Shown here piece by piece: positions 3,351 to 27,188 of a DNA stretch of 40,906 nucleotides (position 1 is its first letter; every line of letters begins with the position of its first letter). The notes under the pieces were generated by a model. That model worked only from the letters and a program-made list of their open reading frames with translations, did not search any database and was not told the DNA's origin. The stretch lies in the IMG/VR virus record IMGVR_UViG_3300005529_000065, positions 1 through 40,906 of that record. One strand, given 5' to 3'. The stretch comes from a virus. A program made the translations under genes and the position numbers.

Positions 3351-4157
3351 GTGGTTCTGAATGCGAATACTGGGTTCGGTCAGACCCCTTATGGTTTCGC
3401 CCCTGGCGGTAAGTCTTCTGGGTCTGGTGGCACGGGGGCTACCGGCCCGACGGGGCCTACTGGTCCCACTGGTGCTACCGGCGCTGCCGGCGCCACAGGC
3501 GCTACGGGTGCTACGGGAGCCACTGGCGCTACTGGCTCTCAGGGTCCTACCGGTCCTACCGGTCCTACCGGCGCCACGGGGGCTACGGGCGCGACCGGGG
3601 CCACCGGCGCGACCGGTCCGGCGGGCGGTTCGTATCCCGTCCCGGGTCGCCTGCGCTCGGCCACATCGATCTGCAACATCGATCCGTGGCAGGCGACGAC
3701 GTTCCAGTCGCTCTCGTCCGGCTTCCTGTTCTTCTACTTCTTCACCGCCCCGGCGTCGATCACGACGACCCAGGTCCGGTACCTGGTCAACGCAGCCGCC
3801 TCCGGTGTGACCGGCAGCAGCATCGGCCTGTACTCGGTGGACTCCTCCGACAACGGGACGCTTCTCACTCAGGCGTCATCGACGACGCTGTTCACCAGCA
3901 CCGGCCCGCAGACCGCCACCTGGGCGGCGTCGCAGTCGCTGACGGCCGGAAACCGCTACGCGGTCGGGTTTCTCCAGGTGTCGAGCAGCACGCCGCAGCT
4001 TCTCGCCAGCGTCGGTGCGCTGTCCGCTCTCACGCTGGAGGAGGCGATCGTCCCGCGCATCGCAGCCTCCAAGTCTTCCCAGACGGTGCAGGGCTCGTTC
4101 ACGGCCGCCTCGCTCAGTGGCGCGTCCAGCTCTGTCATCTACTTCGTAGTCCTGTAA
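3351..4157 (+). CDS. collagen-like structural protein 2
   Basis: 268 residues from GTG 3351. An N-terminal segment of about 30 residues is followed by about 23 Gly-X-Y triplets (GAT, GPT, GAA) at residues 28-95, then a beta-rich domain of about 175 residues. It has the same architecture as the 2552 gene but a longer stalk and a divergent tip. The near-identical GGNGCNACN units make this DNA prone to slippage, so stalk length may vary. Probably a trimeric fibre or head decoration. Confidence 0.8.
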
Positions 4158-4171
4158 AGGAGGGCTGAACG

Positions 4172-4330
4172 GTGGCGCTGTACCCGCTTCTCTCTTTCTG
4201 GTGCGACTACTGCAATACAGTGACGATTCAGTCCGTCGGCGGTTGGGCGCCGGACGGATCGCTGACGATCACCTGCCCGAATACTGCGGGCCATCCCGCG
4301 CAGCCCACTCCACCTCCGGCGACGTTCTGA
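4172..4330 (+). CDS. small Cys-rich protein 2 (zinc-ribbon-like)
   Basis: 52 residues from GTG 4172, preceded by AAAGGAGGG. Motif WCDYCNTVT then ITCPNTAGHP: Cys-x2-Cys plus a second Cys/His, paralogous to the protein at 3195. Its TGA overlaps the ATG of the next gene, so translation is coupled. Function unknown. Confidence 0.65.
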   Translation: MALYPLLSFWCDYCNTVTIQSVGGWAPDGSLTITCPNTAGHPAQPTPPPATF

Positions 4331-4596
4331 TGACAACTCTCTGGGCCCTTAGCGTTCCGACGGTGCGCGAGCAGGTCGACCCGACGAAATGGTTGTGGCG
4401 CCGCTACTGCCTCGACGTGTCCCTGACCTTGGTGAAGTACAACGGGCATTGGGCGACGATCCGGTCTGCGTCCGAGGACTATCTGAATGCGGCGCAGAAC
4501 TATTTCGTAGGCGGCTACCAGTATCAGGTGGGCCAGTCGGTGCATGACGAGCTTGTGGCTGATGGTTTCGGGGCTTACTTGACCCCGCTGAATTAG
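4330..4596 (+). CDS. hypothetical late protein
   Basis: 88 residues. ATG 4330 is inside the preceding stop (TGATGA), so it is translationally coupled. Rich in Trp and Tyr (WLWRRYCLDVSL near residues 20-31; YFVGGYQYQVG near 58-68). Short, without a signal peptide or a recognised domain. By position between fibre-like and tail genes it may be virion associated. Confidence 0.65.
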   Translation: MTTLWALSVPTVREQVDPTKWLWRRYCLDVSLTLVKYNGHWATIRSASEDYLNAAQNYFVGGYQYQVGQSVHDELVADGFGAYLTPLN

Positions 4597-4604
4597 GGGA
4601 CGGT

Positions 4605-4970
4605 ATGGCTGCAACATACGTGAACGTGTTCGGCTCGTACATCAACGCCACCTCGAACGTGGCCGCTACGGGGACGGTGAAGTTCAAGCCGCGGTTCACG
4701 GGCCCGGCGCAGGACACGTCGGTGACGCCGACGGGTTACGTGGAGCCGGTGGAGATTTCGACGCAACTGGTGAATGGCGGGTTCTCGGTGAACCTGCGGG
4801 CCAGCGACGACTCGACGTTGTCTCCTACGGGTTGGACGTACCGGGTGACGGAGGAGATCACGGGGTTTCCGCGGCGCCAGTACGACATCAATGTGCCGTC
4901 GGCTAACGCCGGGTCTGGTTTGAATCTTGTTGGGGCGACGCAGGTTACGCCGCCGAATCTGGGTCACTAA
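4605..4970 (+). CDS. hypothetical structural protein, beta-rich
   Basis: 121 residues from ATG 4605, preceded by GGGGACGG. The sequence alternates hydrophobic and polar residues (TGTVKFKPRF; YVEPVEISTQLVNGGFSVNL) and looks like a small beta-sandwich, as in tail-fibre N-terminal or head-tail connector modules. No motif gives a specific role. Lies in the late operon 8 bases after the preceding gene. Confidence 0.65.
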   Translation: MAATYVNVFGSYINATSNVAATGTVKFKPRFTGPAQDTSVTPTGYVEPVEISTQLVNGGFSVNLRASDDSTLSPTGWTYRVTEEITGFPRRQYDINVPSANAGSGLNLVGATQVTPPNLGH

Positions 4971-4979
4971 GGGGTTTCG

Positions 4980-5237
4980 ATGTGCCGTTCCGGTTGCCGG
5001 ACTAAGGATCACCAGTCTTGGGGCGAGTGCCTGCGGGCGGCCAACCTCACCATCACCCCGGCTGACTCTGGGGCTAAGCCGCACGACTTCGAGTTGCAGT
5101 CGTACTACGACGCCAGGCGCCAAGGGATTCAGCCCGCGTCTACGAAGCTTGAGGCCACGCGGGCCGCTGTGGCTATCAGCGAGAAGCGTGGTACGGCGTT
5201 CGATGCGGGTAAGGAGTCGATCGCCAGTGTCGCCTAA
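4980..5237 (+). CDS. hypothetical late protein
   Basis: 85 residues from ATG 4980. Starts MCRSGCRTKDHQSWGEC, with three Cys and one His in the first 17 residues, which may bind a metal. The rest is helical and polar, ending in KRGTAFDAGKESIASVA. Overlaps the next gene by 11 bases. I recognise no family. Confidence 0.6.
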   Translation: MCRSGCRTKDHQSWGECLRAANLTITPADSGAKPHDFELQSYYDARRQGIQPASTKLEATRAAVAISEKRGTAFDAGKESIASVA

Positions 5238-6135
5238 TGTGCCCGAGTCCACGCTGGTGGACATTGTCACGGACGTTCTGGAGACCCTGTACTCCTACGC
5301 GCAGGTGAAGGACCGGATCGTTCTGCTTACCGTGAATGTGCTGTCCACTGACGGGCAGATCACGGTGTCGGCTACGGACTCCCTGCAGATCCAGCGGAAC
5401 ATGATTCTGCAGTTGTGCACGGAGAACTCAGCGCAGTCGGAGCTGGTGCGGGTGATGGCCGTGAACAACACGACCGGTGTTGTCACGGTGGCCCGTGGTG
5501 TGCGTAACACTACGGCGCAGGCGTGGAACGCGGCCACGGCGATTGTGCATGTGGAGCCGGAGTATCCGATCTCCAGCATTGTCCGGGAGATCAACCACGA
5601 GATTATCGGGATTGTGCCGGACATTTGGTGTGTGAAGAACTTCGCTACGACCGTGAGTGCCGGGTGGCAGATCGGTTACAACATGCCGCAGGACTGTCAG
5701 GGCATCGTGAAGATCGAGTACTACCCGTCGGGTACGCAGAACTTCTGGGAGCCGGTGCGCCGGTACCGGTACGACTTCACGACTCAGATCGTCACCATTC
5801 TCACGCTGATGCAGCCGGGCCGGCCGATGAACATCGTGTACCGCGGCGAGCCGACGGGCATGTTCTACGACACGGACACGGTGAACGGGACGGGCCTGCC
5901 GTCCACGTGCGATGAGCTGCTGACGTTGGGTTCCGCGTACCGGCTGATCAGCAAGCGCACGTCTGGGCGCCTGGTGGACACGCGCGCGGAGACGCCGTTG
6001 ACGGGGCAGTACCGGCAGCCGTCGTTCGTTCAGGACGCCGTGAAGTCGCTGTACGCGATCTATCAGGCACGCCTGACGCAGGAACGGGAACGCCAGCGTC
6101 TCAGGTATCCGATCCCGATGAACTACACCTTCTAG
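5227..6135 (+). CDS. putative head-tail adaptor or tail tubular protein
   Basis: 302 residues. GTG 5227 is chosen because AAGGAG lies 10 bases upstream; the frame is open further 5' but with worse sites. An N-terminal helical segment (ESTLVDIVTDVLETLYSYAQ) is followed by a beta-rich centre and a charged helical C-terminus (QARLTQERERQRL). Its position after capsid and fibre genes and its length suit an adaptor or tubular protein of a short-tailed phage. The role is inferred from context only. Confidence 0.6.
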   Translation: MSPNVPESTLVDIVTDVLETLYSYAQVKDRIVLLTVNVLSTDGQITVSATDSLQIQRNMILQLCTENSAQSELVRVMAVNNTTGVVTVARGVRNTTAQAWNAATAIVHVEPEYPISSIVREINHEIIGIVPDIWCVKNFATTVSAGWQIGYNMPQDCQGIVKIEYYPSGTQNFWEPVRRYRYDFTTQIVTILTLMQPGRPMNIVYRGEPTGMFYDTDTVNGTGLPSTCDELLTLGSAYRLISKRTSGRLVDTRAETPLTGQYRQPSFVQDAVKSLYAIYQARLTQERERQRLRYPIPMNYTF

Positions 6136-6143
6136 GAGGCGAC

Positions 6144-7520
6144 ATGACGCAGCACTACTACGTTGACCTTGCGGCCACCACCACCCTGTCGCTTCCGATC
6201 TCGAACTCTTCGACCACGATGACGGTCGGATCAACGACGGGGTTCCCGGCGTCGTTCCCGTACTACCTGGCTTTGGATTACGGCACCGGGAACCTTGAGG
6301 TTGTTGAGGTCACGGCCGCGTCTGGTCTCGTCTTGACGATGAACCGTGGCGTGTCCGGCACAGTCGCGCTGGCGCACTCGACGGGTGCGGCGATTGTGCA
6401 CGTGGCCCCGGCGCAGTTCTACAACGACACGTCGCTGCACACGAACAGCAACGCGGGCGTGCACGGCGTGGTCGGCTCGGTGGTCGGCACGACCGACGCG
6501 CAGACGTTGACGAACAAGACGATCAGCGGAGCGAGCAACACGCTGTCGGCGATTCCGGAGTCTGCGGTCACGAACTTGACGTCTGACCTGGCGGGGAAGC
6601 AGACCGCGTCCACTGGCCTGACGGCCATGTCGACCCTGCTGAACACCACCCCCGCTGTCGGGATCTTGGTCCAGACGGGCCAGAACACGGTGGGCGAGAC
6701 GAGCCTGGCGGCCGGTTCCAGCAAGGTCACGATCACGAACTCGACCGGCGTCTCCGGCGGGGTGGCCGCGCAGCCGACCATTGATGTGGTGCCGACGAAC
6801 ATCATGGCCGGGTTGCAGTCCCCGGCCCCGACGGTGGTCACGGGTACAGCCGCGAACGGTGGCACGCCGGGCACCGGCACGACCACAACGTACGCAGCCC
6901 CGTCGCCGATGCCGAAGTACCTGCGCATCTCCGGGTGCAACTCGGGTGCGGGTGGCGGCGGTTCCACGGGTGGCACGTCTACGGGTTCCGCTGGCGGTGG
7001 AGCCTGTGGTGCGGCGTCGGCGTACAAGACGATCTCGACGTCCGGTTTGACGTTCCCGCTGCAGGTTGTGGCCCCGGGTGGTTCCGCTGGTGGCACCGCG
7101 GCCAATGGTGGTAACGGTGTGCAGGCGACCGTGAAGGACAACAACGGCGCGGGTTCGACCCTGTGGAGTCCTGGGGTTCCGGCGGCGAACGGTGTCGGGC
7201 ACAGCGACGGCACGCACGCTGGGGCGAACTTCGGCGGCAACTCGGGGTATGACCCGACGACGACGGGCGCAGTGGCGGACTACGTCATCTACGGGCAGCC
7301 GGGTGAGAACGGGTTCCTGGTTTCCGCGACCGTCGGTGCGGGCGGGCAGGGCGGCTCTTCCCACTTCGGCGGCGGCGGCGTGCAGGGCTCGTTCATCCCG
7401 CAGGCCGGGAACAACGCTGCCGGTTACGGCGGCGGCGGTGGGGGTTCAGGTTCCACGACGACTAACGCCACTGGCGGCGGCGGTGGGGGCAGCATCGTCA
7501 TCATCGAGCCGATTTACTAG
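6144..7520 (+). CDS. putative tail fibre / receptor-binding protein
   Basis: 458 residues from ATG 6144, with AGGAGG just upstream. Residues about 115-135 contain DAQTLTNKTISG, a motif frequent in phage tail fibres. The C-terminal third is packed with glycine runs (GAGGGGSTGG; YGGGGGGSG; GGGGGGSIV), like the polyglycine lattices of some phage adhesin tips. The N-terminal 90 residues are beta-rich and could attach to the virion. It precedes another large tail gene. The receptor-binding role is inferred from the Gly-rich tip. Confidence 0.65.
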   Translation: MTQHYYVDLAATTTLSLPISNSSTTMTVGSTTGFPASFPYYLALDYGTGNLEVVEVTAASGLVLTMNRGVSGTVALAHSTGAAIVHVAPAQFYNDTSLHTNSNAGVHGVVGSVVGTTDAQTLTNKTISGASNTLSAIPESAVTNLTSDLAGKQTASTGLTAMSTLLNTTPAVGILVQTGQNTVGETSLAAGSSKVTITNSTGVSGGVAAQPTIDVVPTNIMAGLQSPAPTVVTGTAANGGTPGTGTTTTYAAPSPMPKYLRISGCNSGAGGGGSTGGTSTGSAGGGACGAASAYKTISTSGLTFPLQVVAPGGSAGGTAANGGNGVQATVKDNNGAGSTLWSPGVPAANGVGHSDGTHAGANFGGNSGYDPTTTGAVADYVIYGQPGENGFLVSATVGAGGQGGSSHFGGGGVQGSFIPQAGNNAAGYGGGGGGSGSTTTNATGGGGGGSIVIIEPIY

Positions 7521-25444: not shown

Positions 25445-25488
25445 AGAACCCCCGCACTCAGGCTCACGGGCCCGGGTACGGGGGTTCT
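25445..25488. terminator. bidirectional terminator between converging operons
   Basis: AGAACCCCCG (25445-25454) and CGGGGGTTCT (25479-25488) form a perfect 10-bp stem between the rightward early operon and the leftward small-gene cluster. Confidence 0.75.
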
Positions 25489-25501: not shown

Positions 25502-25690
25502 TTAAGACCACTTCACGGTCTTGTTGTAGCCGTCACGGACGCGGACCGCGCGCTTAGCCGCGCCCATCGAAACCTCAAGCCGCGCCCGGAACAGGGCCGA
25601 CTGCAGGTCCACCCCATCCGCGTCGAAGCAGCGGACCCAGCGCGTACCGTCATCCGACCGTACGTCCACAGTGTAGTCAGCGCAGTACAT
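25502..25690 (-). CDS. small protein of 62 aa, last gene of leftward cluster
   Basis: ATG at 25690 is preceded by GGAGGGGAAC. The product starts MYCADYTVDVRSDDG and contains SALFRARLEVSMGAAKRAVRV, a strand-strand-helix pattern. Its ribosome-binding site overlaps the 3' strand of stem II of a hammerhead-like RNA (25699-25754), so access to it may depend on ribozyme folding or cleavage. Function unknown. Confidence 0.7.
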   Translation of the reverse strand: MYCADYTVDVRSDDGTRWVRCFDADGVDLQSALFRARLEVSMGAAKRAVRVRDGYNKTVKWS

Positions 25691-25698
25691 GTTCCCCT

Positions 25699-25754
25699 CC
25701 GGCTCATCAGGCCCGGGCTGAGTCCCGGACGACCCCATCACGGGGTTTCGCCAA
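25699..25754 (-). ncRNA. hammerhead ribozyme candidate HHR-2 (type II)
   Basis: Leftward strand, 5' to 3': stem II strand TTGGC (25754-25750); GAAA (25749-25746); stem III A+CCCC / GGGG+T (25746-25742 with 25736-25732) closed by loop GTGAT; cleavage-site C25731; stem I GTCCGGG / CCCGGGC (25730-25724 with 25717-25711, one T-G pair) closed by ACTCAG; CTGATGA (25710-25704); stem II return GCCGG (25703-25699; three Watson-Crick and two G-T pairs). All invariant core bases are present. It starts at the first base after the upstream gene's stop and ends in the downstream ribosome-binding site. Confidence 0.88.
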
Positions 25755-26041: not shown

Positions 26042-26096
26042 GACTCATCAGACCAACGAGAGCCACTCGTTGATGACGCCTCAACGGCGTTTCGCC
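26042..26096 (-). ncRNA. hammerhead ribozyme candidate HHR-1 (type II)
   Basis: Leftward strand, 5' to 3': stem II strand GGC (26096-26094); GAAA (26093-26090); stem III A+CGCC / GGCG+T (26090-26086 with 26080-26076), loop GTTGA; cleavage-site C26075; stem I ATCAACGAG / CTCGTTGGT (26074-26066 with 26060-26052, 9 bp with one T-G), loop TGGCT; CTGATGA (26051-26045); stem II return GTC (26044-26042). Stem II is short (3 bp with one G-T). The core is complete. It sits between a TTGACAG element and the 86-aa gene's ribosome-binding site. Confidence 0.85.
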
Positions 26097-26138: not shown

Positions 26139-26231
26139 TCACCACGGCAACACCCGACCACCAGGTGTCCGAGTGTTCACCGGCTCAACCGGCCGACGAA
26201 CCGGCCTACGCGTGATCTGAACCCGCTTCAC
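26139..26231 (-). CDS. possible 30-aa basic peptide
   Basis: GTG at 26231 overlaps the preceding stop by 4 bases (GTGA). The product KRVQITRRPVRRPVEPV... is basic and Pro-rich, ending GGRVLPW. The coupling favours a real gene; size and lack of known relatives make it uncertain. Confidence 0.4.
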   Translation of the reverse strand: MKRVQITRRPVRRPVEPVNTRTPGGRVLPW

Positions 26232-26380
26232 CGCGCCACCCCCATCTCCCGGTAGAGCTGGGCCACCAGATAGGCCGCGTGCTCCTGCACGTCCGAACGA
26301 ACCTCGTCCCGGCCCACCCCGTACTCGCCCATCCACGCCTCAGCGTCGACATCGACGGTGAAACTGATCCTGACCTTCAT
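26228..26380 (-). CDS. small protein of 50 aa
   Basis: ATG at 26380 follows GGAGGGAGGCGTC, a strong site. Product MKVRISFTVDVDAEAWMGEYG then EVRSDVQEHAAYLVAQLYRE: a beta strand followed by an amphipathic helix, compatible with a ribbon-helix-helix DNA-binding fold, though that is not certain. Its leader has plain hairpins but no hammerhead core. Confidence 0.65.
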   Translation of the reverse strand: MKVRISFTVDVDAEAWMGEYGVGRDEVRSDVQEHAAYLVAQLYREMGVAR

Positions 26381-26465
26381 GACGCCTCCCTCCACTCTCA
26401 ACCCACACGGCGTGTGGACCCAGAGCAGAGGACGGGCCTTTCGGCCCGCCCCGGCTGCACAACGA

Positions 26466-26588
26466 CTACTCGTCAGCGGAAAACACGCCCTGCGGGCACC
26501 GACACATCTCGTGATCCGCATGCGCGCATTCACCACACAACACACACACGTACAGGCTCATGCACGACCCATAGTGCTCAGCGTCCAT
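26466..26588 (-). CDS. small Cys/His protein of 40 aa, first gene of leftward cluster
   Basis: ATG at 26588 with GGGAGGG upstream. MDAEHYGSCMSLYVCVLCGE and CAHADHEMCRC give a zinc-finger-like Cys/His set in 40 residues. The ribosome-binding site lies in stem-loop II, and the first base of the ATG in stem III, of the hammerhead-like RNA HHR-3. This is the clearest sign that translation of this gene is tied to ribozyme structure. Function unknown. Confidence 0.7.
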   Translation of the reverse strand: MDAEHYGSCMSLYVCVLCGECAHADHEMCRCPQGVFSADE

Positions 26589-26640
26589 GGTTTCGCCCTC
26601 CCATTGGGCTCATCAGTCCGCGCGGGATACGCGGAGACCA
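26588..26640 (-). ncRNA. hammerhead ribozyme candidate HHR-3 (type III)
   Basis: Leftward strand, 5' to 3': stem III strand TGGT (26640-26637); cleavage-site C26636; stem I TCCGCG / CGCGGA (26635-26630 with 26622-26617), loop TATCCCG; CTGATGA (26616-26610); stem II GCCC / GGGC (26609-26606 with 26598-26595), loop AATGGGA; GAAA (26594-26591); stem III return A+CCA (26591-26588, 4 bp). Loop I (TCCC) and loop II (GGGA) are complementary, as in loop-loop contacts of fast natural hammerheads. The GGGA also belongs to the ribosome-binding site, and base 26588 is the A of the start codon. Confidence 0.9.
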
Positions 26641-26805: not shown

Positions 26806-27188
26806 TCAACCAAGGTCACCACACCAAACCGGCCAGCCACAACACAACCCTCAACCATTGCTTGAGGGTTTTAGTTCATGCGTGAACCATTCGCTTGCAT
26901 CAGCAAGCATTAGCTAGCAGCTGGCATACCAATACCATCAATCACACACACCACATCAACATGATGCCATCGCACAATGGCAACCAACTCACACATTGGT
27001 TTGTGCGCATTCGTGCACGTCACAAGCATGATCATCGCAACGTCTCGCGCGCCGGAAGTTTGACCCGGTATTGCTAAATTCGCGCGCACGGATCTTTATT
27101 ACTGTTGTCTCACAAATCTTGGGAAGTATTCCGGTTTCGGGCGCTGTGGGGATGTCCCCAGTGGGTCTCCGGAGTGCTCCCCCTAGTG
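26806..27188. other. intergenic block rich in inverted repeats (possible replication origin)
   Basis: No supported gene in 383 bp; base composition is visibly richer in A and T than the rest. It contains AACCCTCAA/TTGAGGGTT (26846-26870), GCTTGC-ATCA-GCAAGC (26893-26908), TGCCAT/ATGGCA (26965-26982) and repeats of the type AACCATT(C)GCTTG near 26853 and 26885. It lies between the leftward and rightward transcription units. Origin or divergent promoter region is inferred; no DnaA-box array is clear. Confidence 0.4.
26846..26870. terminator. hairpin AACCCTCAA/TTGAGGGTT
   Basis: Nine-bp stem with 7-nt loop, followed by TTTAG on the rightward strand; could end a transcript or serve as an origin element. 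Confidence 0.45.

What the first reader, a model, noticed from the sequence alone, without database searches (positions are those of the whole stretch)
26588..26640. Type III hammerhead ribozyme that contains the ribosome-binding site and the first base of the start codon of a phage gene
Seen: complete core (CTGATGA, GAAA, TC), stem I 6 bp, stem II 4 bp, stem III 4 bp on the leftward strand. Loop I (TATCCCG) and loop II (AATGGGA) can kiss through TCCC/GGGA. The GGGA is part of the GGGAGGG ribosome-binding site and the A of the ATG pairs in stem III. Known: natural hammerheads cleave 3' of the UH position and are sped up by loop contacts. Inference: translation of the 40-aa gene is coupled to ribozyme fold, and cleavage after C26636 may process the leader.
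Basis: partly seen in the sequence, partly recalled or inferred. Interest (0 to 1): 0.95.

Follow-up and report, generated by a model that had tools for sequence, protein, structure and literature searches.

The report
Self-cutting RNAs between phage genes
A bacterial virus carries three hammerhead self-cutting RNAs between its small genes, and the one reported here contains the signal that tells the ribosome where to start the next gene; clusters like this have been known since 2011, but that degree of merging with gene borders is unusual and can be tested directly.

Summary
The hammerhead at 26588-26640 (- strand) is real: every core base is present, stems I, II and III have 6, 4 and 4 pairs, and Rfam Hammerhead_3 scores 35.1 bits (E 1.2e-7 in this record). 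That is below Rfam's cut-off of 48.5, but eight other phage type III hammerheads I scored also fall below it (30-47 bits). The start codon begins at the last base of stem III, and the GGGAGGG ribosome-binding site lies in loop II and stem II. The second fills the gap between one gene's stop codon and the next gene's ribosome-binding site. Clustered hammerheads in prophage operons were reported, and some shown to cut, by Perreault et al. 2011, so the kind is known. In viral contigs, start codons inside type III ribozymes are rare but recurrent (6 of 91). Type II ribozymes abut the upstream stop codon in 85 of 134 cases, against 6 for random positions. Most likely the three ribozymes cut the leftward transcript at gene borders. 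Coupling to translation is plausible but unproven. Cleavage was not tested, no relative with both gene and ribozyme was found, and a competing fold is predicted 5-6 kcal/mol more stable.

The parts
26588..26640 (-). HHR1, type III hammerhead; predicted cut between 26636 and 26635
   Evidence: sequence; RF00008 35.1 bits; own scanner
26610..26616 (-). HHR1 core CUGAUGA
   Evidence: sequence
26591..26594 (-). HHR1 core GAAA
   Evidence: sequence
26623..26629 (-). loop I UAUCCCG; UCCC complements GGGA of loop II
   Evidence: sequence; loop pairing above chance in phage type III set
26596..26602 (-). ribosome-binding site GGGAGGG inside loop II and stem II, 7 nt before the ATG
   Evidence: sequence; anti-SD duplex -10.7 kcal/mol
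26466..26588 (-). 40-aa Cys-rich ORF; its ATG (26588-26586) begins at the last base of stem III
   Evidence: weak match to Gordonia phage Kuwabara gp45
26228..26380 (-). 50-aa ORF, phrog_2869-like, own ribosome-binding site
   Evidence: 52% identity to Mycobacterium phage Paito gp59
26042..26096 (-). HHR2, type II hammerhead; predicted cut between 26075 and 26074; loop I UGGCU complements downstream AGCCA
   Evidence: RF02276 34.7 bits
25755..26015 (-). 86-aa ORF, phrog_6842-like
25699..25754 (-). HHR3, type II hammerhead; predicted cut between 25731 and 25730; starts at the base after TGA 25757-25755 and ends 8 nt before ATG 25690
   Evidence: RF02276 34.2 bits
25694..25700 (-). ribosome-binding site GGAGGGG overlapping the end of HHR3 stem II; GAG can pair with CUC of HHR3 loop I
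   Evidence: sequence
25502..25690 (-). 62-aa ORF downstream of HHR3
   Evidence: no relatives found
25445..25488 (-). terminator-like hairpin at the end of the leftward operon

Best explanation
This is a type III hammerhead ribozyme and the first of three hammerheads (III, II, II) in one leftward operon of small genes in an actinobacterial tailed phage distantly related to Streptomyces phages of the Manuelvirus group. As the transcript is made, each ribozyme most likely cuts it once, at 26636/26635, 26075/26074 and 25731/25730. This splits the operon into short mRNAs whose 5' ends begin with a stable stem I hairpin and a 5'-hydroxyl. In HHR1 the ribosome-binding site and start codon are built into the ribozyme, so ribosome binding and the catalytic fold cannot both occupy that RNA; cutting releases the start codon from stem III. 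Shown here: sequence, fold class, placement, and the general placement of phage hammerheads at gene junctions. Inferred: cleavage, mRNA processing, 5'-end protection, and competition with ribosomes.
For: Full-length covariance match for all three and none in shuffles. All three lie on the coding strand of one operon, each in front of a start codon with a ribosome-binding site. Among viral contigs, 73% of type II and 45% of type III hammerheads have a ribosome-binding site plus ATG ORF within 60 nt downstream, against 11% and 7% at random positions. Type II hammerheads begin at an upstream ORF's stop codon (-3 to +5 nt) in 85 of 134 cases against 6, as HHR3 does. Start codons inside type III hammerheads recur in unrelated contigs, three in a row in L233 with TGA-ribozyme-ATG twice. 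Similar natural clusters in prophage operons cleaved in vitro, and one in E. coli (PMC3088659).
Against: No cleavage data. No relative with both a homologous gene and a ribozyme: homologous genes in Arthrobacter, Mycobacterium, Gordonia and Streptomyces phages lack hammerheads, so conservation cannot be tested. Without tertiary contacts, a competing fold that pairs GGUUU with the core AAACC is 5-6 kcal/mol better than the HHR1 fold in context; only 5.5% of phage type III hammerheads have so large a gap. No consensus promoter was found.
Confidence: 0.72

Rival explanations
1. The ribozymes are active but only cut the transcript; overlap of HHR1 with the ribosome-binding site is compaction, made easy because stem II of many hammerheads (GGAC/GGGC before GAAA) looks like a ribosome-binding site. 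There is no regulation of translation.
For: Embedded starts are a minority, 6 of 91 type III; predicted exposure cost after cutting is ordinary; non-embedded hammerheads also carry anti-SD complementarity in stem II (mean -4.0 kcal/mol, against -5.4 for embedded, where part of the embedded set was chosen by a purine-rich pattern).
Against: The site in HHR1 is unusually strong (-10.7 kcal/mol) and takes part in the possible loop-loop contact.
Confidence: 0.35
2. HHR1 is a decayed or misfolding hammerhead-like RNA that cleaves poorly; HHR2 and HHR3 do the processing.
For: Competing fold 5-6 kcal/mol better; short stem III; score below Rfam cut-off.
Against: No core base is changed; GC-rich stems; possible 4-pair loop contact; eight other phage type III hammerheads score 30-47 bits, also below the cut-off; folding energies ignore Mg2+ and loop contacts.
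Confidence: 0.15
3. The ribozymes release or circularise RNA between cuts (as retrozymes and viroid-like RNAs do) rather than make mRNAs.
For: Three hammerheads in series would release defined 561-nt and 344-nt pieces.
Against: The pieces hold ordinary phage genes with ribosome-binding sites; Perreault et al. looked for spliced or circular products and found none.
Confidence: 0.04
4. Chance resemblance.
For: Two short core motifs alone are expected about once in this window.
Against: Full structure absent from 40 shuffles; three in one operon; covariance E-values of 1e-7.
Confidence: 0.01

Closest known systems
Clustered hammerhead ribozymes flanking genes in prophage operons (Perreault et al. 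2011, PMC3088659)
   Same: Several hammerheads of mixed type between small genes on one transcript; proposed to cut long phage transcripts into operon- or gene-length mRNAs; the Agrobacterium triple cleaves in vitro and in E. coli.
   Different: The passages I read do not describe a ribosome-binding site or start codon inside the ribozyme, or ribozymes abutting stop codons; those clusters involve other genes and hosts.
HHphage of haloviruses HF1 and HF2 (PMC3088659)
   Same: A hammerhead in a tailed virus just upstream of a start codon; the 5' end of the native transcript was reported to suggest cleavage in vivo.
   Different: It lies 13 nt upstream of the start codon in archaeal viruses and is a structural variant; HHR1 overlaps the start codon and has the consensus core.
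Rfam RF00008 Hammerhead_3
   Same: Full-model match to fold and core.
   Different: 35.1 bits against a cut-off of 48.5; longer GC-rich stem I, Watson-Crick loop complement.
Rfam RF02276 Hammerhead_II (HHR2, HHR3)
   Same: Full-model match; HHR2 keeps the loop I to 3'-tail pseudoknot (UGGCU/AGCCA).
   Different: 34.7 and 34.2 bits against 37; in HHR3 the ribosome-binding site itself could form the short contact.
glmS ribozyme (own knowledge)
   Same: Self-cleaving RNA in a bacterial mRNA leader.
   Different: Different fold, needs a cofactor; no overlap with the start codon.

Membership tests
Hammerhead ribozyme class, type III permutation | Core CUGANGA, GAAA and UH at the three-way junction | tested here: met
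   CUGAUGA, GAAA, UC present
Hammerhead ribozyme class, type III permutation | Stems I and II closed by loops, stem III open | tested here: met
   6, 4 and 4 pairs
Hammerhead ribozyme class, type III permutation | Contact between loops I and II | tested here: inconclusive
   UCCC/GGGA complementary; such pairing is enriched in phage type III hammerheads (9/91 vs 2.3 expected) but not shown here
Hammerhead ribozyme class, type III permutation | Self-cleavage 3' of C17 | not testable with these tools
   needs an RNA assay
Rfam RF00008 (curated membership) | Score at or above gathering cut-off 48.5 | tested here: not met
   35.1 bits; other phage type III hammerheads also 30-47 bits. By Rfam's own rule it is not an RF00008 member; it is filed as type III hammerhead by structure
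Rfam RF02276 (HHR2, HHR3) | Score at or above gathering cut-off 37 | tested here: not met
   34.7 and 34.2 bits
Hammerhead ribozyme class, type II permutation (HHR2, HHR3) | Core, closed stems I and III, open stem II | tested here: met
Clustered prophage hammerheads (Perreault 2011) | Two or more hammerheads on one strand flanking genes of one phage operon | tested here: met
   three on the - strand within 942 nt, flanking small phage genes
Clustered prophage hammerheads (Perreault 2011) | All copies lie on one transcript and cleave it | not testable with these tools
   no promoter match; terminator-like hairpin after the last gene; no RNA data

The most novel reading that the evidence does not exclude
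Phage junction hammerheads form a class in which ribosome traffic gates mRNA cutting. Ribosomes stopping at the upstream stop codon that abuts type II ribozymes, or loading on a ribosome-binding site inside the ribozyme (HHR1 and similar type III cases), block the catalytic fold, so poorly translated junctions are cut and well translated ones are kept.
Probability: 0.2. Interest if true: 0.85.

Novelty: new variant of a known kind. Interest (0 to 1): 0.55.

Why it matters
The role of bacterial and phage hammerheads has been open since 2011. The placement found here (stop codon, ribozyme, ribosome-binding site and start codon with almost no spare bases) gives a concrete hypothesis, translation-gated cutting of phage operons, that can be tested with reporters. 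HHR1 and the L233 series are compact test cases.

Tried and rejected
Nucleotide relatives in 50,697 phage records: none. Protein relatives of the 86-aa and 62-aa ORFs in viral contigs: none. Hammerheads in related phages (Manuel, WRightOn, contigs L002 and L003, metallophosphoesterase relatives, phages with homologous genes): none. A general rule that phage type III hammerheads contain the start codon was rejected: 6 of 91. The CUGACGA...GAAA match at 26439-26476 was rejected: it cannot form stem II. A sigma-70-type promoter: none. Minimum free energy as evidence was set aside: shuffles fold nearly as well.

Full report
OBSERVATION. The - strand sequence 26640-26588 reads UGGUC|UCCGCG-UAUCCCG-CGCGGA-CUGAUGA-GCCC-AAUGGGA-GGGC-GAAA-CCA, followed by UGG, so the last A is the A of AUG 26588-26586. 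Rfam Hammerhead_3 matches over its whole length with 35.1 bits, E 2.5e-5 in a 2-kb stretch against all families and 1.2e-7 for this record with that family alone. The Rfam cut-off (48.5) is not reached. Eight other phage type III hammerheads scored in the same way gave 30.4-46.7 bits, also below it, so the cut-off is strict for phage members. A scan of the whole window for all three permutations found exactly three hammerheads and none in 40 Markov shuffles.

Two type II hammerheads lie downstream on the same strand: HHR2 26042-26096 and HHR3 25699-25754 (RF02276, 34.7 and 34.2 bits; cut-off 37). HHR2 has the type II pseudoknot (loop I UGGCU with downstream AGCCA). HHR3 starts at the base after stop codon 25757-25755 and ends 8 nt before ATG 25690; GGAGGGG overlaps its stem II and can make a short contact with loop I (CUC/GAG).

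SURROUNDINGS. The window is a 40.9-kb virus record. Terminase, portal, capsid, DnaB-like helicase, exonuclease and metallophosphoesterase are recognisable. Terminase is 42% identical to Streptomyces phages of the Manuelvirus group. As there, the metallophosphoesterase and a DNA-binding protein run rightward and are followed by a leftward operon of small genes. In the window this operon holds ORFs of 40, 50, 86 and 62 aa, and a possible 30-aa one at 26231-26139. The 50-aa and 86-aa ORFs have relatives in Mycobacterium, Arthrobacter and Gordonia phages; the 40-aa ORF has only a weak match to Gordonia phage Kuwabara gp45. A terminator-like hairpin closes the operon at 25488-25445. None of the related phages searched has a hammerhead, though several related contigs do not cover this region.

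PLACEMENT IN OTHER PHAGES. Pattern scans of viral contigs followed by my structural scanner gave many hammerheads, with up to ten type II in one 7-kb stretch (L167). Of distinct type II hammerheads, 73% are followed within 60 nt by a ribosome-binding site plus ATG ORF of at least 30 aa, against 11% at random positions; type III 45% against 7%. The stop codon of an upstream ORF lies -3 to +5 nt from the 5' end of the ribozyme in 85 of 134 type II and 30 of 86 type I, against 6 and 1 at random; type III shows no such effect (4 against 4). Relative to GAAA, the stop of type II typically ends 1 to 8 nt before it.

START CODONS INSIDE TYPE III. In a set gathered without regard to start codons, 6 of 91 distinct type III hammerheads, from 4 contigs, have the ATG 3 to 6 nt after GAAA; the others have it 12 or more nt away, or none within 60 nt. 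A pattern that required a nearby ATG gave 13 distinct cases counted together with these. In contig L233 three consecutive type III hammerheads end at or within 2 nt of an ATG, and two of them begin directly after a TGA. HHR1 is the tightest kind, with the ATG 2 nt after GAAA. Stem II of embedded cases is more complementary to the 16S anti-SD sequence (mean -5.4 against -4.0 kcal/mol, p 0.009), but part of that set was chosen by a purine-rich pattern; HHR1 has -10.7.

MECHANISM. Shown: fold class, coordinates, placement. Following from knowledge of hammerheads: cutting 3' of C17 at 26636/26635, 26075/26074 and 25731/25730, giving 561-nt and 344-nt internal pieces and a 3' piece, each beginning with the stem I hairpin and a 5'-hydroxyl. 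Inferred: that this makes separate mRNAs, and that ribosome loading and catalysis compete at HHR1. Predicted cost of opening the HHR1 ribosome-binding site and start codon is 12.8 kcal/mol uncut and 9.8 cut, against a median of 8.6 for other genes in the window, so cleavage may modestly help translation. HHR2 and HHR3 show no such drop. A caution is a competing fold (GGUUU with AAACC) that is 5-6 kcal/mol better than the HHR1 fold in context, a gap reached by only 5.5% of other phage type III hammerheads; it could be a trap or a switch.

KNOWN OR NEW. Perreault et al. 2011 (PMC3088659) described clustered hammerheads of types I to III flanking genes in prophages, showed activity for three tandem arrangements, and reported a hammerhead 13 nt before a start codon in haloviruses HF1 and HF2. 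So the kind is known. I found no paper in the held library that describes ribosome-binding sites or start codons inside natural hammerheads, or the abutting stop codons; subscription journals are mostly missing, so this is not proof of novelty.

Noticed in passing
L167 (IMGVR_UViG_3300017605_000570), - strand 3926-6740: Ten type II hammerheads in under 3 kb, about one every 300 nt; other long series in L118, L130, L181 and L213.
   Followed up: partly
L096-L573, type II hammerheads: In viral contigs type II hammerheads begin at the stop codon of the upstream ORF far more often than chance (85 of 134 against 6).
   Followed up: partly
L231:8758-8824 (+): A pistol ribozyme above Rfam's cut-off in the same phage contig as a start-codon-containing type III hammerhead.
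   Followed up: no
window 26430-26460 (-): GC-rich hairpin GGGCGGGCC-GAAA-GGCCCGUCC between the 40-aa and 50-aa genes, without a U tract; could be a terminator or a processing signal.
   Followed up: no
window 26846-26870: Hairpin AACCCTCAAGCA/TGGTTGAGGGTT upstream of HHR1, with a T-rich tail on the + strand.
   Followed up: no
L449 and L453: Type III hammerheads in Patescibacteria and Shapirobacteria genome bins (L453 has two nearly identical copies 725 nt apart) without a nearby ATG ORF.
   Followed up: no
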